Part shown: in pieces, positions 194-8,415 of the stretch
Layout: the number at the start of each line of letters is the position of its first letter
Position numbering within the stretch: position 1 is the first letter of the stretch
NCBI GenBank assembly: GCA_004347925.1
Contig: QNVD01000236.1
Location: 1-8,489, forward strand
Direction: 5' to 3'
Origin: Hadesarchaea archaeon
Lineage (GTDB): Archaea; Hadarchaeota; Hadarchaeia; Hadarchaeales; WYZ-LMO6
Length of the DNA stretch: 8,489 nucleotides
The notes under the pieces: generated by a model
The model's input: only the letters and a program-made list of their open reading frames with translations
What the model was told of the DNA's origin: nothing
Databases searched by the model: none
Translations under genes and position numbers: made by a program

Positions 194-212
194 TTTAGTT
201 GAGCCTAAATTT
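191..212. promoter_or_regulatory. Probable DtxR-family operator (iron box), perfect 8-bp inverted repeat
   Basis: AAATTTAG (191-198) and CTAAATTT (205-212) are exact reverse complements around a 6-bp spacer TTGAGC. The TTTAG...CTAAA core resembles the TTAG-N-CTAA half-sites of DtxR/IdeR and the TTTAGG...CCTAAA half-sites of MntR-type operators. It begins inside the TATA box and ends 4 bp before the ATG at 217, so a bound repressor would block TBP/TFB or polymerase. The adjacent gene encodes a DtxR-family protein, so autoregulation of the operon is the simplest reading. The symmetry is observed and the binding is inferred. Confidence 0.7.
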
Positions 213-216
213 TGGG

Positions 217-837
217 ATGGCCACCGAGAGCTCGGAGGAATACCTGGAGGCGCTCTACCGCCTGAAGGAGAGGGGGGAGACCCCCACCACCACCAAGGTG
301 GCGAGGGAGCTGGGGGTGGCCCCCTCCAGCGCCACCCTCATGCTGAAGAAGCTGGCGGAGAGGGGTTACCTCAGGCGCCAACCCTACCGGGGAGTGACCC
401 TCACCGCCAGAGGGGAGAGGGTGGGGAGGAGCATCCTCAGGAAGCACAGGGTGATGGAGAGGTTCCTGAGCACCCTGGGGCTCTCCCCCTCCAAGGCCCA
501 CCGGAGGGCCTGCGAGCTGGAGCACCACATCCCCGACGAGGTGGAGACCGCCATCCACCGCAGGATGGAGGCCCAGAAGCCCCTCCCGGAGGGGGCGCCC
601 CCGGATTCCCTTCCCCTCACGGGCCTTCTGGAGGGGCAGAAGGGGGTGGTCTCCTTCCTCTCGGGCGGGACCCGCTCCTGCCGCAGGCTGGCCGACCTGG
701 GGATCACCCCGGGAACGGAGGTGGAGGTCCTCAAATCCGCCCTCTTCCGGGGACCCCTCCTGCTGAGGGTGAGGGGGACCACCCTGGCGGTGGGGAGGGG
801 CCTGGCCTCCAAGATCCTGGTGAAGCCCCTCGGGTGA
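217..837 (+). CDS. DtxR/MntR-family metal-dependent repressor with C-terminal FeoA-like domain
   Basis: A 206-residue iron-responsive repressor of the DtxR/IdeR/MntR family. Residues 1-70 form the winged helix-turn-helix (TTTKVARELGVAPSSATLMLKKL, given here as its positions 24-46), residues 71-120 the metal-binding dimerisation region, and about 135-205 a FeoA/SH3-like domain with the signature RLADLGITPGTEVEVL at 157-172. Candidate metal ligands by alignment with MntR are E8, E11, H77, C99, E102 and H103. MntR has Glu at position 99, whereas DtxR/IdeR has Cys in its C-x-x-E-H motif, so this protein looks more like an iron than a manganese sensor. Start chosen at ATG 217: a TTG at 199 is also in frame, but it lies inside the inverted repeat and too close to the TATA box. 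FeoB follows after 4 bases, so the fused domain may also stand in for FeoA. Family very sure, metal inferred. Confidence 0.92.
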   Translation: MATESSEEYLEALYRLKERGETPTTTKVARELGVAPSSATLMLKKLAERGYLRRQPYRGVTLTARGERVGRSILRKHRVMERFLSTLGLSPSKAHRRACELEHHIPDEVETAIHRRMEAQKPLPEGAPPDSLPLTGLLEGQKGVVSFLSGGTRSCRRLADLGITPGTEVEVLKSALFRGPLLLRVRGTTLAVGRGLASKILVKPLG

Positions 838-841
838 AGGG

Positions 842-2752
842 ATGGAGAAAAGAATCAGGATAGCCCTGGCCGGCAACGCCAACGTGGGGAAGTCGGTGAT
901 CTTCAACCACCTGACCGGCCTGCACCAGCACATAGGCAACTGGCCCGGGAAGACGGTGGAGAAGGCGGAGGGCACCCTGTACTTCAGGGGAAGGCTCATA
1001 GACGTGATCGATCTGCCAGGGATCTACTCCCTCTCCACCTTCTCGCTGGAGGAGAGGATCTCCCGGGAGTACATAGCCAAGGAGAAGCCCGACGTGGTGA
1101 TCAACGTGGTGGATGCCTCCGCCCTGGAGAGGAACCTCTTCTTCACCCTACAGCTGCTGGAGCTGGAGCCCAAGATGGTGGTGGCCCTCAACCAGCTGGA
1201 CATGGCGGAGAGGAGGGGGGTAAAGGTCGACCCCAGGGCTCTGGAGAAGCTGCTGGGGGTGCCCGTCGTTCCCACCGTGGCCGTGAGGGGGAGGGGGATG
1301 CACGCCCTCCTCGAGAAGGCGCTGGAGGTGGCGGAGGGGAAAAGGCGGAGGCCGCGCAGGCTCTCCTACGGCAGGGAGATCGAGAGGAGGGTCAGCCGCC
1401 TCCTTCCCCTGCTGGAGGGAACTGAAACCGGATATCCCCCCCGCTGGCTCGCCCTGAAGCTCCTGGAGGGGGACGAGGAGATAAAAAGGCTGGTGAGGAG
1501 GATCCGCCCCAGGGCGGCGGAGCTGGCGGAGAAGTACGCGAAGGAGCTGGAGAAGCTGTACGGGGAGAAGGCCCCCCTCCTCCTCACCTCCCGCCGGTAC
1601 AGCCTGGCCAGCCGCATAGCCAACGGGAGCCAGAGGCTCTCCCCCCGTCCTTCCCCCACCGGGAGGATGGATGCCCTCACCACCCACCCCGTGCTGGGGT
1701 ACCTCCTCCTGGCCGCCGTCCTCCTCTCCCTCTTCCTCACGGTCTTCTGGGTGGGTTCGAGGGTGGAGGAGGCTCTGGAGAGGGTAACCGACCCCCTGGT
1801 GAGGGCCGCCTCGGAAAGGTTCGGGGAGCTGGCGGGGGAGGGGGTGTTAGGAGGGATCCTGGCGGGCCTCACCATCGCCCTGCCCTTCGTCCTCCCCTTC
1901 TACGTGCTCCTGACCCTGCTGGAGGACACCGGGTACCTGGCCAGGGCGGCCTTCCTGATGGACGGGCTGATGCACAGGGTGGGGGTGCACGGGAAGGCCT
2001 TCATCCCCCTCCTGCTGGGGTACGGCTGCAACGTCCCGGCCTGCCTTGGCTGCAGGATCATGGAGACGGAGAGGGAGAGGACCCTCTCCATCTTCCTCTC
2101 CACGCTGGTGCCCTGTGCCGCCCGTACGGTGGTGATCCTGGGGCTGGTGGGAAGGTTCGTGGGAATAGGCTGGGCGGTGGGGCTCTACCTGCTGGATCTG
2201 CTCGTGATCCTGCTCCTGGGTAGGCTGGCCTACAGGGTGCTTCCCGGGGAGCCCATGGGTCTCATCCTGGAGATCCCCCCCTACCGCCGCCCCCACCTCC
2301 CCACGGTGCTGAGGGGGAGCTGGGAGAGGACCAAGGACTTCCTCTACGTGGCCCTCCCCTTCATCCTGGGGGGAAGCCTCCTCCTCACGTCCCTGAGGAT
2401 GGCGGGGCTCCTGGACTCCTTCTCCAACCTCCTCAGCCCCCTCACCGTGGGCTGGCTGGGCCTTCCGGCGGCAGCTGGGGTGGTCCTCCTCTTCGGCGTG
2501 CTCAGGAAGGAGCTGACCCTCATCATGCTCACCCTCCTCCTAGGCTCCGACCTATCCCTCCACCTCACCCCGGCCCAGATGATCACCTTCGCCACCGTGA
2601 CCATGTTCTACTTCCCCTGCGTGGCCACCCTGGCGGCCCTGGTGAGGGAGGTGGGCTGGAGGAAATCCCTGGCCATAGCCTTTTCGGAGATCCTCTTCGC
2701 CCTCTGGCTGGGAGGGGTGATGTTCAGGATCCTCACCCTGGCGGGCCTCTGA
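842..2752 (+). CDS. feoB: Ferrous iron transporter FeoB
   Basis: A 636-residue G-protein-coupled Fe(II) importer of the cytoplasmic membrane. The N-terminal GTPase domain shows G1 GNANVGKS at 11-18, the G2 threonine T38 in [10 protein letters not shown]3 DLPG at 57-60 and G4 NQLD at 117-120. The G5 loop, VAVRGRG at 146-152, departs from the usual S-A. A helical guanine-nucleotide-dissociation-inhibitor-like linker covers about 175-260. The membrane part runs from about 283 to the end, with the first gate motif GYGCNVPA at 393-400 (C396), the second gate region FGVLRKEL at 551-558, and a conserved PCVATL with C593. It is shorter than the roughly 770-residue E. coli protein but in the usual range for archaea. 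GGTGA at 833-837, overlapping the upstream stop, serves as SD for the ATG at 842. No separate FeoC gene is seen. It is cotranscribed with the upstream repressor and so is probably iron-repressed. Confidence 0.96.
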
Positions 2753-2797: not shown

Positions 2798-2977
2798 ATG
2801 CCACCCAAAATAGACCAGGAGAAGTGCTCGGGCTGCGGGGAGTGCGTGAACGCCTGCCCCGTAAGCGTGATCGAGGTGAACAACAAGAAGGCCAAGGTGG
2901 TGAAGCCCGACGACTGCGTGGACTGCAGGGCCTGCGAGGCCGTCTGCACCACGGGTGCCATCACCTTCCCCGAATGA
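2798..2977 (+). CDS. Small 2[4Fe-4S] ferredoxin
   Basis: A 59-residue protein with two clostridial-type iron-sulfur motifs: C10-C13-C16-C20, followed by Pro21, and C40-C43-C46-C50. This pattern predicts two [4Fe-4S] clusters and low-potential electron transfer in the cytoplasm. The second motif lacks the usual Pro after its last cysteine (Thr51 instead). The N-terminus MPPKIDQEKCSGCGECVNAC is typical of minimal archaeal and clostridial ferredoxins. The start at 2798 is fixed by the good TATA spacing and by the reading frame; a nearby ATG at 2788 opens a different frame without the cysteines. The gene lies 45 bp after feoB and ends 3 bp before the convergent radical SAM gene. It is a plausible electron donor for that radical SAM enzyme, or a general ferredoxin; the partner is not known. 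Confidence 0.93.
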   Translation: MPPKIDQEKCSGCGECVNACPVSVIEVNNKKAKVVKPDDCVDCRACEAVCTTGAITFPE

Positions 2978-2980
2978 GGC

Positions 2981-4042
2981 TCAGAGGGCTTCCAGCACCG
3001 AGAGGTCTGCTGAGCTGACGTAGAGAGCCTCCTCCCTCTCCAGCGCCTCCCCTATCCTCCTCAGGACCTCCTCCTTATCCCTGGGAAAGAGGTAACCTTC
3101 GTAATCCTGCTTCAGCACCCACCTGGGACCCCCGGGGGTGAGGTAGAAGGGGTTGGCGAAGTGATCGAAACAGAGCCTCCCCGAGAACTCCAGCTCCTCC
3201 ACCAGCAGCTCCAGCTCCCTCAGCTCCCCGTGGGGGCTCTGGAGCCTGAACTTTCCCTCCCTCACCTCCTGGAAGAGGGGGGTGCCCCTCAGGGGGACCA
3301 GCCTCCTCACCCTCACGAACTCGGGGTTAACCTCGTTCACGACCCTGGCCGTGCCCCTGGCGTGCTCCTCCCACCTCTCCTCTCCCCCCAGCCCCAGGAT
3401 GAAGTACAGGGAGAGCTCCATGCCCGCCTCCCTCGCCCTCCTCCCCCCCTCCACCACCTGCTGGGGAGTCAGGCCCTTGTTCATCCTCCTCAGCACCTCC
3501 TCGTCCCCGCTCTCGAGCCCCACGTGAAGCCTGGAGAGCCCGGCCTCCCTAAGCCTCCTGAGCTCGTGCTCCGACTTCCTGAAGAGGGACCTCCCCCTGG
3601 CATAGCAGGTGATCCTCTCCATCTCCCCCAGCCTCCTCCCCACCTCCTCCAAGATCCCCACCAGCCTGTCGGTGGGCACCAGGAGGGCATCCGCATCCTG
3701 CAGGAAGAGGGTCCTCCCACCCGAGAAGAACCAGGAAAGGAGATTTTGGAGTCCATCCCTCCGCCCCTCCGGCAGGTCGGGGAGGAGCTCCCAGGCCTCC
3801 TCCCCCACCTCCTGCAGGATCTCCACGGCCCTGCCCAGTCCCCTCACCTCCTCCTTCACCTCCTCCTCCCCCCTTATCGAGAATCTCCCCCTCCCGTAGG
3901 GCTTGCCGTAGCAGAACTTGCACAGGGACCAGGGGCAGTTTCTGGTCACCCTGAGGAGCAGGGAACAGCTCCCCCCCTCCGAGGGGGGACGGATGGGGCC
4001 CACCTCGTGCTGGAAACTCCTGAGCTCCTCCAGCCCCCTCAT
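2981..4042 (-). CDS. Radical SAM protein (Elp3/MiaB-like core, COG1032-type)
   Basis: A 353-residue radical S-adenosylmethionine enzyme of unassigned substrate. The cluster ligands lie in TRNCPWSLCKFC: C36, C41 and C44. The spacing is therefore C-x4-C-x2-C, not the textbook C-x3-C-x2-C. Other barrel signatures are FLQDADALLVP at 113-123, HVGLESGDEEVLRRMNKG at 173-190 (SAM ribose/amino-group contacts in this family) and FILGLGGE at 214-221. After about residue 245 there is a C-terminal part with no extra cysteine cluster (only C291), so no SPASM-type domain is evident. Its ATG at 4042 overlaps the TGA of the upstream deacetylase gene (ATGA), and GGAGGG at 4049-4054 acts as SD. The two are almost certainly cotranscribed. 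The family is sure; the reaction is unknown. Confidence 0.9.
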   Translation of the reverse strand: MRGLEELRSFQHEVGPIRPPSEGGSCSLLLRVTRNCPWSLCKFCYGKPYGRGRFSIRGEEEVKEEVRGLGRAVEILQEVGEEAWELLPDLPEGRRDGLQNLLSWFFSGGRTLFLQDADALLVPTDRLVGILEEVGRRLGEMERITCYARGRSLFRKSEHELRRLREAGLSRLHVGLESGDEEVLRRMNKGLTPQQVVEGGRRAREAGMELSLYFILGLGGEERWEEHARGTARVVNEVNPEFVRVRRLVPLRGTPLFQEVREGKFRLQSPHGELRELELLVEELEFSGRLCFDHFANPFYLTPGGPRWVLKQDYEGYLFPRDKEEVLRRIGEALEREEALYVSSADLSVLEAL

Positions 4043-4782
4043 CCGAAACCCTCCAAGAAGGCCCTGACGTTCCTTCCCAGCACGGAGAGGTTATATCCCC
4101 CTTCCAGCACCCCGTACCTCCTGCCCCCGCACTTCCTCAGGGACCACTCCTTCACCATCCTCCCCATCTCTTCGTAGTCCTGGGTGCTCAGGGTTCCCCC
4201 CCAGTCCTCCTGATGGTTGTCGAACCCGGCCGAGACCGCCACCAGCTCGTAGTCCTCCCTTTCGAGGAAGGAAGCCACCCCCTCCAAGATATCCTCCCTC
4301 CTCCCCTCCGCGTGATGGTAGGAGACCTCCCTAGAACCCGAGAAGATGGCCGCCGTGCCGTCCCCGTAGTGAAGATCGAAATCCACCACCACCGCCCTTC
4401 GAATCCTCCCAGACCTCAGCAGCCTCCGGAGGGAAATGGCCAGGTTGTTGAAGTAGCAGAAGCCCCAGAAGCTGCTGGGTCCCGCGTGGTGCCCGGGGGG
4501 CCGGATCAGGGCGAAGGAGGGCTCCCCCTCCATAGCCAGCTCCGAGGCCTTCACCGCCCCTCCCGCCGCCAGGAGGGCCACGGGATAGACCGAGGGGAGG
4601 GCCTTCACCCTCTGCAGGTGGGAGGGGGAATGCACCAGCAGGATCTCCTCCTCCCTCGCGGGCTCCGGCTCCACGAACTCAAAGCCCCTGAGCTCCCTCA
4701 CGATGGCCTCCATCCTGCCGGGCGCGGAGGCGGGATCGGAGGAGTAGACGGTCCTGAAGTTCTCGCTGTAAACCACCTTCAT
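4039..4782 (-). CDS. Histone deacetylase superfamily protein (zinc-dependent, compact)
   Basis: A 247-residue arginase/HDAC-fold amidohydrolase predicted to remove acetyl groups from lysines or polyamines. Key motifs are present: RPPGHHA at 94-100 with the catalytic His pair H98/H99; FCYFNN at 108-113; the zinc ligands D136 and H138 in DFDLHYGDGT (most relatives have HHGNGT); SAGFDNH at 184-190 with the third zinc ligand D188; and EGGYN at 227-231 with the transition-state Tyr230. All catalytic residues are kept, but the protein is shorter than the common 300-plus residues, with the region around 150-170 much reduced. Start ATG 4782: it restores the family's MKVVYSE N-terminus, while the open frame further upstream to 5796 is antisense to the M42 gene. 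Substrate is unknown; archaeal histone, Alba or acetylpolyamine are options. It is the first gene of a two-gene unit with the radical SAM gene. Confidence 0.93.
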   Translation of the reverse strand: MKVVYSENFRTVYSSDPASAPGRMEAIVRELRGFEFVEPEPAREEEILLVHSPSHLQRVKALPSVYPVALLAAGGAVKASELAMEGEPSFALIRPPGHHAGPSSFWGFCYFNNLAISLRRLLRSGRIRRAVVVDFDLHYGDGTAAIFSGSREVSYHHAEGRREDILEGVASFLEREDYELVAVSAGFDNHQEDWGGTLSTQDYEEMGRMVKEWSLRKCGGRRYGVLEGGYNLSVLGRNVRAFLEGFG

Positions 4783-5889: not shown

Positions 5890-6438
5890 TCAGAGGTGTA
5901 TCCTGACGTTATCCGATTCCATGCTGAGCCTCAGCTCCTCCGCCACTATGTAGGTGTTCTGCATCTGGACGGCCCAGGTGAGGGGGGGATACATGTGGGC
6001 ATCGGCCGTCTCACCGGTTCCCAGACCCATCAGCCCCCCTAACAGGGGAATCCCCTGCTTCACGCGGGAACCGTCCAGGACCAGGTGGCTCAGGGGAAGC
6101 AGGTTCAGGACTATGATGTCGGTTTCCATGTACTTCGCCTTCAGGTAAAAGTTCTCGGCATCCACGCTCTTCAGCTCTATCCAGGAGCCATCCACCAGGA
6201 TCCTGACGTTATCGAAGTGGATGGAAGGGGAGGTGACCACCGTGACGTTCTCGTTCTCGTATCCCACGATGTGCAGCTCGCTCCAGGTGTAGGAGTAGAA
6301 GGCCCAGATCTTGAAGGTCTTACCCGGATTCCCCAGCAGGGGGGTGGCGAGCAGCAGGGGAAGCACTGCCACCAGCGGAAGGGCCTTCCCGAAGCCTTTG
6401 AAAAAGGAAAAGGGCTGGCGTCCGGTTCTAGCTCTCAA
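5890..6438 (-). CDS. Exported beta-rich protein of unknown function, last gene of the envelope operon
   Basis: A 182-residue protein I do not recognise. Residues 1-18 carry several Arg/Lys, 19-36 are a hydrophobic helix (ALPLVAVLPLLLATPLLG), and the rest alternates polar and hydrophobic residues in short stretches (SIHFDNVRILV, NFYLKAKYMETDIIVLN, SDNVRIHL), which suggests a beta-strand-rich domain outside the membrane. A signal peptide or N-terminal anchor is likely. The start is a TTG at 6438: GGTGA (minus strand of 6445-6449) precedes it by 6 bases, and no ATG gives the hydrophobic leader. It overlaps the upstream DUF6230-like gene by 11 bases, so coupled translation is likely. Its C-terminal part shows faint similarity in pattern to that protein, which could mean the same fold or an old duplication. 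Composition is less GC-rich than the iron and peptidase genes. Function unknown. Confidence 0.75.
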   Translation of the reverse strand: MRARTGRQPFSFFKGFGKALPLVAVLPLLLATPLLGNPGKTFKIWAFYSYTWSELHIVGYENENVTVVTSPSIHFDNVRILVDGSWIELKSVDAENFYLKAKYMETDIIVLNLLPLSHLVLDGSRVKQGIPLLGGLMGLGTGETADAHMYPPLTWAVQMQNTYIVAEELRLSMESDNVRIHL

Positions 6439-6919
6439 GCTTTATCACCATGTTCCCGAGGTCCAGGGAGGCCACGCTCATCTCGGTTACCCAGGCGCTG
6501 ACGTTCTCCACGTAGAGGGTGTCCGCGGTCACCGCGAAGTCCTTACCGCCGTAGGGCCCTATCTTCTGATTGCTGGCCGTCATCTTGGCGGCCACAAAGT
6601 TATCGCACTTCATGAGCACCCCGCTCGCGGAAGCCTGCGGGCTCTGGATGATGGCCCTCACCTTCAGGCCTCCCAAGCTCATCTCCTTGACTATTTCGAG
6701 CTGAGAGATGGTCGCACTGCTCAGTTCCTGGAAGATCTTGTTTCCGTAGTTGTCCATGCTCCCCGCGTACATGTTGAGGTTACTGCCGTTGATGCTCCCG
6801 GCCTTCAGCTGAAAGTCGCTGACGGGCATGGCCAGTCCCACCCCCGTCACCGTGGAGAGGACCACCACGCCCACCACCGACGCCAGCCCTATCGCCGCCA
6901 TTTTCCCGAACCCTTCCAT
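6428..6919 (-). CDS. DUF6230-like membrane-anchored or secreted protein
   Basis: A 163-residue protein with one N-terminal hydrophobic helix (about 8-30, ending GVGLAMPVS) and then a beta-rich domain with many small and polar residues. The pattern PVSDFQLKAG at 32-41, LMKCDNFVAAKMTASN at 102-117, and a C-terminal repeat-like run TLYVENVSAW to LGNMVIKLE recalls actinobacterial DUF6230 proteins (VSGQQFKVSA..., ATNLFVDL..., DADATFTNIEIG), often mislabelled cholesterol esterase. There is no serine-hydrolase motif, so no enzymatic call is made. A single cysteine, C105, is present. The ATG at 6919 has a near-perfect SD AAGGAGGTG (minus strand of 6925-6933) 5 bases upstream. It follows a DUF6114-containing membrane protein after 35 bases, the same neighbour pair seen in actinobacteria, which strengthens both assignments. 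Gene boundaries are sure; family name is from memory of the pattern. Confidence 0.72.
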   Translation of the reverse strand: MEGFGKMAAIGLASVVGVVVLSTVTGVGLAMPVSDFQLKAGSINGSNLNMYAGSMDNYGNKIFQELSSATISQLEIVKEMSLGGLKVRAIIQSPQASASGVLMKCDNFVAAKMTASNQKIGPYGGKDFAVTADTLYVENVSAWVTEMSVASLDLGNMVIKLES

Positions 6920-6938
6920 TTCTCCACCTCCTTATTCT

Positions 6939-6961
6939 GTCATAGGAATCCTTCCTATGAC
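6939..6961 (-). promoter_or_regulatory. Perfect 10-bp inverted repeat (RNA hairpin or operator) between operon genes
   Basis: GTCATAGGAA (6939-6948) and TTCCTATGAC (6952-6961) are exact reverse complements around a 3-base loop TCC. The element spans the TAG stop of the DUF6114 gene (6957-6955) and ends 5 bases before the SD of the DUF6230-like gene. In the operon mRNA it would fold into a tight stem-loop. Possible roles are an mRNA processing or stability boundary, translational control of the downstream gene, or a protein-binding DNA palindrome. No U-tract follows, so a terminator is unlikely. Confidence 0.6.
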
Positions 6962-7941
6962 CCTGAAGCCGGGCGCCACGCGTAGGCGTGGGCTCCGGCC
7001 GCTATGCAGAAGAGGGAGCCCAGCAAGGCTCCACCCAAGGTCCCCATCCAGGAGAGGGCGGCCAGGATGACCAGGAAGAGGCCCACCACCCTGCAGGAAT
7101 CCCTCCTGGGGAACATGGCCATGATCGCCGCCAGCGCCAGGCAGGAGCTTCCCAAGAACATCCCCCAGAAGACGAGGGAGGTGTACAGGTACATGGGGAA
7201 GAACTTCAGGGGCACGTACAATATCATCAAACCCCCCAGCACCGCACAGTAGATCCCCCAGAACGGATACCTCCCCCTTAGGGCTTCCCAGCGCTCCCTG
7301 ACCCTGGGTAGCCTCCCCACCAGCAGGGGGAGGAAAAGGGCCACGACCACGTAGGGGACGAGGGGCACGGCCCACATGATGGCCAGCAGGATGAGGAGGG
7401 GAGGGGCGGGGAGGAAGCCCCCTATGGAGAGATCGAGGTAGAAGAGGAAGCCCAGCAGCAGGGAGATCCCCACCAGGGTCTGGGTCACCACCTTCCCGGT
7501 GGAAGCCAGGTCACGCTGAACGTAATCCATCACCACCAGCCCGATGAAGGCCAGCAGGAGGGTGGTCAGGAGGAGGCTCACGGCCAGGGTGAAGGAGAGG
7601 AGGGAGGAGGAGGAGCGGTGGTACCAGAGCGCGAGCAGGGAAACCGCCAGGAGGGGAGGGAAGAAGAGGTGCTTTTTGTTCCAGAAGTTGAGGAAGCCCA
7701 GGCCTATGGTGACGGCCAGGGAGTTCCATTTCTCCCCCAGGCCCCTGAGGAGGGAAAAAGAAGGAAAACGGAGGCGACCCCCGGGCGATCCCCCCACCGG
7801 TTCTGGAACCTCCACCGGGGTGAACACCTCCTGAACACTTTCCGTTTCCTGGGGGCATCCAGCGCCGGAGTCTCCCCCGTCGCCCGCGTTTCCGAGGACC
7901 CGTTTGAGAGACTCCGCCGCGTCTAGGATCCCCACGGTCAC
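6955..7941 (-). CDS. Polytopic membrane protein with C-terminal DUF6114-like domain
   Basis: A 328-residue integral membrane protein. Residues 1-90 are a soluble, flexible, Gly/Pro/Glu-rich cytoplasmic-type N-terminus. Then come hydrophobic segments at about 92-106, 114-138, 152-170 and 178-208, followed by a charged loop RVRERWEALRGR at 213-224. The last part (225-323) has four more segments and matches my recollection of actinobacterial DUF6114 proteins: PFWGIYCAVLGGLMILYVP at 226-244, a GSSCLALAAIMAMF stretch, GLFLVILAALSW at 287-298, GGALLGSL at 303-310, and a terminal GAHAYAWRP. Actinobacterial DUF6114 proteins are short and consist mainly of this unit, so the added N-terminal membrane domain is a fusion or extension. 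The GTG at 7941 overlaps the TGA of the upstream gene (GTGA), indicating coupled translation; a GTG at 7935 is an alternative. Function unknown; no enzymatic or transporter motif is visible. Confidence 0.78.
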   Translation of the reverse strand: MTVGILDAAESLKRVLGNAGDGGDSGAGCPQETESVQEVFTPVEVPEPVGGSPGGRLRFPSFSLLRGLGEKWNSLAVTIGLGFLNFWNKKHLFFPPLLAVSLLALWYHRSSSSLLSFTLAVSLLLTTLLLAFIGLVVMDYVQRDLASTGKVVTQTLVGISLLLGFLFYLDLSIGGFLPAPPLLILLAIMWAVPLVPYVVVALFLPLLVGRLPRVRERWEALRGRYPFWGIYCAVLGGLMILYVPLKFFPMYLYTSLVFWGMFLGSSCLALAAIMAMFPRRDSCRVVGLFLVILAALSWMGTLGGALLGSLFCIAAGAHAYAWRPASGS

Positions 7942-8267
7942 CCCTGCGCCGGCTTATTCGCCGTTCCCTCCAGCAGCTTCTTTATCTCCTCCACGCTCCT
8001 GTCCAGCGCCGACAGGAGGGCCCCACTGACGTCCTGCGGGGTGATGCTGTTCAGGGCCTCCTCGATCATCCGCTCCAGCTTCTCCTCCATCCTCTTCTTG
8101 GTCCTCTGAATCAGGGAGGCCTTGAACTCCCCCATCTTCAGTTTGTCCAGCCCCTCCAGGATGGACTGCCTCAGGGTGGGCTCTATGAGCCCCCTCAGTT
8201 CTTCGGAAAGGCTCTGCTGGAGTTCCTTTTTCATCAGTTCGTAGACCTCGTCCTCTTCCATTTTCAT
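7938..8267 (-). CDS. Small charged helical protein, first gene of the envelope operon
   Basis: A 109-residue soluble protein rich in Glu, Lys, Leu and Met, predicted almost wholly alpha-helical. Amphipathic runs lie at about 4-27, 29-45, 47-73 (KKRMEEKLERMIEEALNSI at 57-75) and 78-101, with a disordered tail ANKPAQG. Helical-bundle or coiled-coil oligomerisation is plausible. There is no signal peptide, so it should be cytoplasmic, where it could contact the soluble N-terminus of the membrane protein encoded next. I do not recognise the family. The open frame extends up to an ATG at 8354, but that extension contains the strong TATA box at 8315-8323, so the start is placed at ATG 8267, about 26 bases after the predicted transcription start, with GGAAGAG 6 bases before it. 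TTG 8282 and ATG 8261 are alternatives. Its stop overlaps the next start. Confidence 0.75.
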   Translation of the reverse strand: MKMEEDEVYELMKKELQQSLSEELRGLIEPTLRQSILEGLDKLKMGEFKASLIQRTKKRMEEKLERMIEEALNSITPQDVSGALLSALDRSVEEIKKLLEGTANKPAQG

Positions 8268-8314
8268 TCTAAGCTCTTCCAAATCTTCCCCGCTTTTTTC
8301 CCTCTCAGGATGCC

Positions 8315-8323
8315 TTTTATAAA
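8315..8323 (-). promoter_or_regulatory. Strong TATA box of the four-gene envelope operon
   Basis: The minus strand reads TTTATAAAA, a textbook archaeal TATA box. Expected transcription start is near 8293, giving a leader of about 26 bases before ATG 8267. It is the best TATA match in the window. Because it lies inside the longest version of the reading frame starting at 8354, it argues for the shorter protein. Confidence 0.65.
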
Positions 8324-8415
8324 GAACGGGCGGGAGTGGGGAAAAAGGGTACATAGCTTAACAATTTTGTAACACGGAAAAACTTTGAAGAAACGGCCCG
8401 GAGAGGAGGGAAGGA

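What the first reader, a model, noticed from the sequence alone, without database searches (positions are those of the whole stretch)
5890..8267. Four-gene archaeal operon joining DUF6114-like and DUF6230-like proteins with two further unknown proteins
The sequence shows a tight minus-strand operon: a cytoplasmic helical protein, a multi-spanning membrane protein with a DUF6114-like C-terminus, a DUF6230-like exported protein and a second exported beta-rich protein. The first two genes overlap as GTGA and the last two overlap by 11 bp. From family knowledge, DUF6114 and DUF6230 genes are neighbours in Streptomyces and relatives, with no known function. Finding the same pair, in a row, with extra partners in an archaeon suggests a conserved envelope module: a membrane platform, two extracytoplasmic beta domains and a cytoplasmic helical partner. 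A role in lipid or surface-layer organisation is only a guess.
Basis: partly seen in the sequence, partly recalled or inferred. Interest (0 to 1): 0.75.

Follow-up and report, generated by a model that had tools for sequence, protein, structure and literature searches.

The report
Archaeal membrane hub and surface proteins
An archaeon of the order Hadarchaeales carries four neighbouring genes for a membrane protein, two exported proteins and a small soluble protein, a version of a gene pair also found side by side in salt-loving archaea and actinobacteria; the membrane protein likely holds its exported partner on the cell surface, but what that partner does there is still unknown.

Summary
Window 5890-8267 (-) is a four-gene operon in a Hadarchaeales genome. 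The same four genes in the same order occur in four of the phylum's 28 held genomes, all of one family; genes 1, 3 and 4 were not found in the other 24. DUF6114 passes Pfam's cut-off (43.4 bits, cut-off 27.9). The DUF6230 protein does not (24.1, cut-off 27.5), though its ortholog in a sister genus does (41.2). The 'GTGA' overlap is probably a start-codon error. The pair is not new to archaea: DUF6230 lies within 1 kb of DUF6114 in 77 of 80 scanned loci (21 of 23 haloarchaeal), and 42 of 45 DUF6230 matches in 33 genomes neighbour DUF6114. The DUF6230 core is predicted with confidence as all-beta, with four strands of 20-25 residues and no convincing PDB match. Its N-terminal hydrophobic segment is as conserved as the domain, unlike the signal of the fourth protein. 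Fusions fit a surface module: DUF6230 with PKD repeats or wall hydrolases, DUF6114 with signal peptidase I in one locus. I propose, as inference, that DUF6114 is the membrane receptor of DUF6230. Lipid handling, fibre maturation and esterase activity remain rivals.

The parts
8313..8324 (-). TATA-box-like element CTTTATAAAAGG upstream of the first gene
   Evidence: Sequence; same element in G002 and CTTTATATTAGG in G001 upstream of the orthologous gene. Promoter function inferred.
7938..8267 (-). Gene 1: 109-aa soluble protein, helical by inference from its sequence
   Evidence: ORF; no hydrophobic segment; matches in 4 of 28 genomes of the phylum; no hits in 4173 ORFs of 81 other loci; dN/dS 0.14.
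6955..7935 (-). Gene 2: 326-aa multi-spanning membrane protein with C-terminal DUF6114 (start at the conserved GTG 7935 rather than 7941)
   Evidence: Pfam PF19609 43.4 bits over cut-off 27.9; start from relatives; seven hydrophobic windows, two of them overlapping.
6973..7284 (-). DUF6114 domain (residues 220-323 of the 328-aa reading)
   Evidence: invariant R, P, F, G, S, G, W shared with haloarchaeal-type proteins in alignment A1.
6925..6933 (-). Shine-Dalgarno-like AAGGAGGTG before the DUF6230 gene
   Evidence: Sequence; function inferred.
6428..6919 (-). Gene 3: 163-aa exported DUF6230-related protein
   Evidence: Pfam PF19741 24.1 bits, E 4.7e-5, below cut-off 27.5; ortholog in G003 41.2 bits, above it; a hadarchaeal-only profile finds 37 of 4173 ORFs at E<=1e-3, and the 30 rows printed are all DUF6230 genes of DUF6114 loci.
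6839..6895 (-). Conserved N-terminal hydrophobic segment of gene 3 (residues 9-27), putative anchor
   Evidence: Hydropathy; residues 4-35 have identity 0.66 across four genomes, equal to the rest of the protein, against 0.35 and 0.62 in gene 4.
6431..6814 (-). All-beta domain of gene 3 (residues 36-163), predicted
   Evidence: AlphaFold2 mean pLDDT 80.6; ten-residue blocks from residue 31 on at 78-96; main strands 36-55, 59-82, 85-109, 126-149.
5890..6438 (-). Gene 4: 182-aa exported protein, beta-rich by inference, with an ordinary variable signal peptide
   Evidence: ORF; nine homologs; matches in 4 of 28 genomes of the phylum; AlphaFold2 poor, pLDDT 40.8; weak match to a protein of the second DUF6114 locus of G001, E 3.8e-5.

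Best explanation
The four genes form an envelope operon in which the multi-spanning DUF6114 membrane protein likely acts as a receptor that holds the exported DUF6230-related protein at the outer face of the cell membrane through that protein's conserved N-terminal hydrophobic segment. Shown: the gene set and its conservation, the close neighbourhood of the two families in three lineages, the conserved hydrophobic segment, the domain fusions. Predicted: an all-beta DUF6230 domain with four strands of 20-25 residues, following the membrane segment. Inferred: the physical contact between the two proteins; that the domain is a docking unit on which surface parts are displayed (PKD repeats in haloarchaea, wall hydrolases in two actinobacterial proteins, the domain alone here); that the second exported protein joins it outside; and that the small soluble protein works on the cytoplasmic face.
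For: (1) Neighbourhood: DUF6230 within 1 kb and on the same strand as DUF6114 in 77 of 80 scanned loci (misses L043, L046, and L104, where the contig begins 92 bases upstream). Since those loci were chosen by DUF6114, the less biased count is whole-genome: 42 of 45 DUF6230 matches in 33 genomes have DUF6114 within 1 kb. (2) The N-terminal hydrophobic segment of DUF6230 is as conserved as the domain in the four hadarchaeal genomes (0.66 and 0.66), more in haloarchaea (0.58 and 0.38), about equal in the bacterial set (0.32 and 0.30), while gene 4 of the same operon shows the usual pattern of a cleaved signal (0.35 and 0.62). (3) Fusions: DUF6230 followed by 4-6 PKD repeats in four ORFs of three Halorientalis loci; a DUF6230-like domain followed by transglycosylase and M23 peptidase in L060 and L102; DUF6114 fused to archaeal signal peptidase I in the second locus of G002 (68.7 bits, cut-off 51.85). 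(4) Second loci in G001 and G002 again combine DUF6114 with exported DUF6230-like proteins. (5) The four-gene order in four genomes and dN below dS.
Against: No contact between the two proteins was tested; no complex prediction was available. 24 of 65 DUF6114 matches have no DUF6230 match within 1 kb in the whole-genome search. That search missed at least four DUF6230 genes that pass Pfam's cut-off when scanned alone (L027, L044, L045, L047), so its counts are not complete; but other DUF6114 genes (L043, L046) have none even by my own profile. Three of 45 DUF6230 matches lack a DUF6114 neighbour. The signal-peptidase fusion is one case of six hadarchaeal DUF6114 proteins. DUF6230 in the SLT/M23 proteins and in three of the four PKD proteins rests on the profile built here, not on Pfam; in the fourth Pfam's score is below cut-off. 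The conserved hydrophobic segment could instead be a specially processed signal. Mirror-tree r = 0.92 has no control and mostly reflects shared descent.
Confidence: 0.45

Rival explanations
1. A lipid-handling module: the long-stranded beta sheet of DUF6230 forms a hydrophobic face or groove that binds lipids taken from the membrane beside DUF6114, as beta-groove lipid-transfer proteins do.
For: The predicted domain is made of long strands without a helix, and the positions conserved across the three lineages are hydrophobic, aromatic or small. The label 'cholesterol esterase' in actinobacteria (recalled; see the esterase rival) would fit lipid binding.
Confidence: 0.22
2. DUF6230 is an extracellular ester hydrolase (cholesterol esterase), with DUF6114 as an accessory membrane protein.
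For: [quoted passage not shown] 2007; I saw only its reference and passages citing it). That this family is DUF6230 is my recollection of annotation practice and comes from no call.
Against: No serine, histidine or aspartate is conserved across hadarchaeal, haloarchaeal and bacterial members together, though a lineage-specific activity is not excluded by this; the predicted domain is all-beta, not alpha/beta-hydrolase; 94 of 96 members match DUF6230 in Pfam at E<=1, and hydrolase-type families appear only as chance-level rows in single members (for example BAAT_C, E 0.14).
Confidence: 0.08
3. A secretion and maturation module like SipW-TasA: DUF6114 marks or helps to process a special class of signal peptide, and the beta proteins assemble into extracellular fibres.
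For: DUF6114 is fused to signal peptidase I in G002's second locus. In G001's second locus another signal peptidase I gene lies 3.5 kb from DUF6114, and a T2SSE/PilB3-type ATPase gene 2.2 kb from the module. In B. subtilis TasA is cleaved by a dedicated archaeal-type peptidase, SipW (PMC10269814, abstract and passages).
Against: The window shows no signal peptidase or pilus gene among nine ORFs scanned, and 5 of 6 hadarchaeal DUF6114 proteins have no signal peptidase match. Of the two exported proteins beside G001's second locus that look TasA-like by eye, one has no family match and the other a BACON_2 domain.
Confidence: 0.15

Closest known systems
DUF6230-DUF6114 gene pair of actinobacteria (Microbispora, Leifsonia, Streptomyces, Kitasatospora and others)
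   Same: Both families, co-directed and next to each other; DUF6230 with an N-terminal hydrophobic segment.
   Different: Order reversed (DUF6114 downstream in 41 of 42 adjacent pairs over all 33 genomes). A TetR-type gene upstream in 24 of 57 bacterial loci (cluster; one member confirmed). Genes 1 and 4 absent from the loci.
Haloarchaeal DUF6230-DUF6114-exported protein clusters (Natrinema, Natrialba, Natronococcus, Halorientalis)
   Same: Archaeal; same pair plus, in 17 of 24 loci, a second exported protein.
   Different: Order reversed; their third gene is unrelated to gene 4 by profile comparison (hhalign probability 0.3%); DUF6230 sometimes fused to PKD repeats.
Second DUF6114 loci of the same hadarchaeal genus (G001:C1, G002:C17)
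   Same: DUF6114 followed by a DUF6230-like gene in a tight operon; a gene-4-like protein in G001 (E 3.8e-5).
   Different: A 294-aa membrane-plus-beta protein and, in G002, signal peptidase I fused to DUF6114. No match to the 294-aa protein in the window's own 88%-complete genome.
SipW-TasA type secretion of matrix fibres
   Same: Dedicated membrane factor encoded beside its exported beta-rich client (analogy only).
   Different: No signal peptidase among the window ORFs scanned; no match of DUF6230 members to a TasA-type family in Pfam.

Membership tests
PF19609 DUF6114 | Profile score above Pfam's curated cut-off (27.9 bits) | tested here: met
   43.4 bits, residues 220-323, profile 3-106 of 106.
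PF19609 DUF6114 | Shared conserved residues of the membrane domain (R..PF.G, S, G, W) | tested here: met
   Seven invariant columns across 12 haloarchaeal-type and 4 hadarchaeal sequences (A1).
PF19741 DUF6230 | Profile score above Pfam's curated cut-off (27.5 bits) | tested here: not met
   24.1 bits, E 4.7e-5 for the window protein; its ortholog in G003 scores 41.2, above the cut-off. I therefore call it DUF6230-related.
PF19741 DUF6230 | Homology to the gene next to DUF6114 in other phyla | tested here: met
   Profile of 11 hadarchaeal proteins finds 37 of 4173 ORFs at E<=1e-3; the 30 rows printed are all DUF6230 genes of DUF6114 loci.
PF19741 DUF6230 | Gene neighbour of DUF6114 | tested here: met
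   35 bases downstream of it in the window, order reversed relative to other phyla.
Cholesterol esterase / alpha-beta hydrolase | Conserved nucleophile-His-acid residues | tested here: not met
   No such residue conserved across the three lineages in A4.
Beta-groove lipid-transfer proteins (LptA, AsmA/TamB, TULIP) | Sequence or fold match | tested here: inconclusive
SipW-TasA system | Dedicated signal peptidase encoded with the exported protein | tested here: not met
   None among nine window ORFs scanned; present only at second loci of relatives.
Anti-phage defence systems | Match to PADLOC models | tested here: inconclusive
   None for genes 2-4; gene 1 one weak match, E 0.0033, 15.3 bits.

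The most novel reading that the evidence does not exclude
DUF6114 and DUF6230 are the two halves of an undescribed surface-anchoring system shared by Archaea and Bacteria: a membrane receptor and a docking domain of a new all-beta fold, onto which lineages mount adhesive repeats, wall hydrolases or nothing, with hadarchaea having built an enlarged version that includes a receptor fused to its own signal peptidase.
Probability: 0.3. Interest if true: 0.7.

Novelty: new variant of a known kind. Interest (0 to 1): 0.45.

Why it matters
Two Pfam families without a stated function turn out to be close neighbours in three distant lineages. The fusions (surface repeats, wall hydrolases, signal peptidase) and the conserved hydrophobic segment turn 'unknown' into a testable claim of receptor and docking domain at the cell surface, and haloarchaeal or Streptomyces laboratory strains could serve to test it. 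The DUF6230 domain is also predicted with confidence without a convincing counterpart among solved structures in the searches made.

Tried and rejected
Internal repeats in DUF6230: best half-to-half alignment reached by 66 of 300 shuffles, so not supported. Common origin of gene 4 and DUF6230: direct alignment reached by 82 of 500 shuffles and hhalign probability 14% or less. The only link is indirect, through the 157-aa protein of G001's second locus (E 3.8e-5 with the gene 4 profile, 2e-4 with the DUF6230 profile, among 394 frames), so I leave it open. Gene 4 against the third gene of haloarchaea: no relation by profile. Structure of gene 4: pLDDT 40.8, not used. No convincing fold match for DUF6230 in the PDB or viral models (the best viral row, a tail protein, has E 2.5e-3, probability 0.93, TM 0.23), nor a sequence relative in the PDB (antibody light chains from E 0.081 on, taken as chance; gene 4, one row at E 0.71). 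That does not show a new fold. Plasmid and phage searches gave only Natronococcus. Phage families: none at E<=0.01. Literature: the search for DUF6230/DUF6114 gave one paper, of which the one passage holding the term only lists a DUF6230 gene among promoters. In the listings I saw no functional study of either family; these searches used other words. The GlnR paper with a 'putative cholesterol esterase' (passages) could not be tied to DUF6230. Trees: in the concatenated tree hadarchaeal pairs (both loci) are monophyletic at 0.993 and haloarchaeal ones at 0.991, and the two are not recovered as sisters; recent transfer is not suggested, but rooting is unknown.
Full report
What is there. The window is contig C153 of a 1.24-Mb genome held as 88% complete. 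Some homologs of its proteins are named 'Candidatus Hadarchaeales archaeon' by NCBI (P0007 and P0009, P0015), so the host is taken to be a member of that order. On the minus strand lie four co-directed genes. Gene 1 (7938-8267) encodes a soluble 109-aa protein. Gene 2 (6955-7935 by the conserved start) encodes a multi-spanning membrane protein with a C-terminal DUF6114 domain. Gene 3 (6428-6919) encodes a DUF6230-related protein with one N-terminal hydrophobic segment. Gene 4 (5890-6438) encodes an exported protein without a supported family.

Is it real. The same four genes in the same order lie in G001, G002 and G003, close to the same M42 peptidase gene. Most substitutions against G002 fall on third codon positions, and dN/dS is 0.14-0.24 for the four genes. 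A TATA-like box upstream of gene 1 is shared with G002 and, changed, with G001. The overlap of genes 3 and 4 is 11 bases in the window and G002, 14 in G001, absent in G003. The 4-base overlap of genes 1 and 2 disappears if the start shared by the relatives (MGIL) is used. In the phylum, gene 1, the DUF6230-related gene and gene 4 match in the same 4 of 28 genomes. DUF6114 over the cut-off is in the same four, with one weak match elsewhere. In 394 genomes sampled from the closest relatives outward, the window's own included, again only these four have a DUF6230 match.

Family assignment. DUF6114 is above Pfam's cut-off. The DUF6230 match is below it for the window protein and above it for G003. 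A further test: a profile of hadarchaeal proteins alone was run against 4173 open frames of 81 DUF6114 loci from other organisms. It gave 37 frames at E<=1e-3, and each of the 30 rows printed is a DUF6230 gene of its locus. A seeded iterative profile found DUF6230 in 78 of 81 loci, and pairs within 1 kb on one strand in 78 of 81; without the seed locus L024 this is 77 of 80. Of 96 members in alignment A4, 94 match PF19741 at E<=1.

The pair is wider than the finding says. A scan of genomes with a mixed DUF6114 alignment kept the best 80 of 203 confirmed places. By their titles 23 are haloarchaea or relatives (21 with DUF6230 beside DUF6114), and 57 are bacteria, nearly all actinobacteria, one a Paludifilum (56 with it; the exception is cut by the contig start). 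In the whole genomes behind 34 of these loci (33 genomes), 42 of 45 DUF6230 matches have DUF6114 within 1 kb, 41 of them downstream. Conversely 41 of 65 DUF6114 matches have a DUF6230 match as neighbour. That search misses some genes: L027, L044, L045 and L047 have DUF6230 genes beside DUF6114 that pass Pfam's cut-off when scanned alone (33.3-37.1 bits), yet their genomes gave no match. In the hadarchaeal loci the order is reversed. Smaragdicoccus and a Nocardiaceae bin carry arrays with five DUF6230 genes and several DUF6114 genes.

Clues to function. First, fusions. In Halorientalis, DUF6230 is followed by 4-6 PKD repeats in four proteins; Pfam itself reports DUF6230 in only one of them, below cut-off (22.1 bits), the rest by my profile. 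In L060 and L102 a DUF6230-like domain (63.9 and 56.9 bits by my profile, not listed by Pfam) precedes a transglycosylase and an M23 peptidase. In the second DUF6114 locus of G002 one open frame joins signal peptidase I (TIGR02228, 68.7 bits, cut-off 51.85) to DUF6114 (31.9 bits, cut-off 27.9); the window's DUF6114 protein and the four others of this family have no signal peptidase match. These put DUF6230 next to the membrane segment of surface proteins, and DUF6114, in one case, beside the machinery of exported-protein maturation. Second, the hydrophobic segment of DUF6230 is unusually conserved, with gene 4 of the same operon as an internal control. Third, the domain is predicted as all-beta with four strands of 20-25 residues (pLDDT 80.6 overall, 78-96 per block in the core), and no convincing counterpart was found. 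Fourth, positions conserved across lineages are hydrophobic, aromatic or small, with no candidate catalytic residue shared by the three.

Second loci in hadarchaea. G001:C1 and G002:C17 hold a further DUF6114 gene, each followed by a DUF6230-like gene (E 2.5e-4 and 6.9e-19 by the hadarchaeal profile among 394 frames). Both also carry a 294-aa membrane-plus-beta protein; the G002 one aligns with DUF6230 at a score reached by 0 of 500 shuffles. In G001 there is a 157-aa relative of gene 4 (E 3.8e-5). This repeats the plan 'DUF6114 plus several exported proteins' at a second place. The window's own genome shows no second DUF6114 and no 294-aa protein, but it is incomplete.

Explanation. I propose that DUF6114 is the membrane receptor of DUF6230: it binds the conserved hydrophobic segment and fixes the beta domain on the outer face, where the domain stands alone or carries further parts. 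In the window, gene 4 would join outside and gene 1 would act at the cytoplasmic face; nothing but the operon supports these last two steps. Contact, retention of the segment and the role of the domain are all untested. Rivals are lipid handling, a SipW-TasA-like maturation and fibre system, and an esterase. The esterase reading comes from the 'cholesterol esterase' label, whose link to DUF6230 I recall but could not check; the paper behind it (Xiang et al. 2007) I saw only in reference lists and citing passages.

Verdict. The hadarchaeal operon is a new variant of a known, functionally unexplained gene pair, of moderate interest: the pair's breadth, the fusions and the conserved segment make one clear hypothesis testable.

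Noticed in passing
window 199-837 (+) and 842-2752 (+): DtxR-type iron regulator with a C-terminal FeoA domain directly 5' of FeoB: a compact iron-uptake unit.
   Followed up: no
window 2981-4042 (-) and 4039-4779 (-): A radical SAM gene overlaps a histone-deacetylase-like gene by 4 bases; the two are neighbours in G001 (L008) and G003 (L011) as well, and G002 (L012) has the radical SAM gene near the module.
   Followed up: partly
window about 2798-2977 (+): A short frame with two CxxCxxCxxxC clusters looks like a ferredoxin; the ORF list shows only overlapping frames there.
   Followed up: no
L010:9046-10200 (-): Signal peptidase I fused in one frame to DUF6114; one of six hadarchaeal DUF6114 proteins.
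   Followed up: partly
L041:6668-8449, 8712-10727; L038:6627-8813; L040:6536-8602: Halorientalis proteins with an N-terminal DUF6230-like domain and 4-6 PKD repeats.
   Followed up: partly
L060:1334-4171 (-), L102:2194-4638 (-): Actinobacterial proteins with a DUF6230-like domain followed by transglycosylase and M23 peptidase, divergent from the DUF6230-DUF6114 pair.
   Followed up: partly
L046:4417-6387 and L043:4348-6390: Haloarchaeal membrane proteins (656 and 680 aa frames) with DUF6114 at the C-terminal end (Pfam-tested in L046, 77.6 bits) and no DUF6230 found within the locus.
   Followed up: no
L092, L056: Arrays with five DUF6230 genes interleaved with DUF6114 genes and another exported protein family in Smaragdicoccus and a Nocardiaceae bin.
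   Followed up: no
L009:12215-17279: Beside the second hadarchaeal locus of G001: a 633-aa protein with signal peptidase I, a DUF5305 protein and two exported proteins that look TasA-like by eye; one matches no family, the other a BACON_2 domain.
   Followed up: partly
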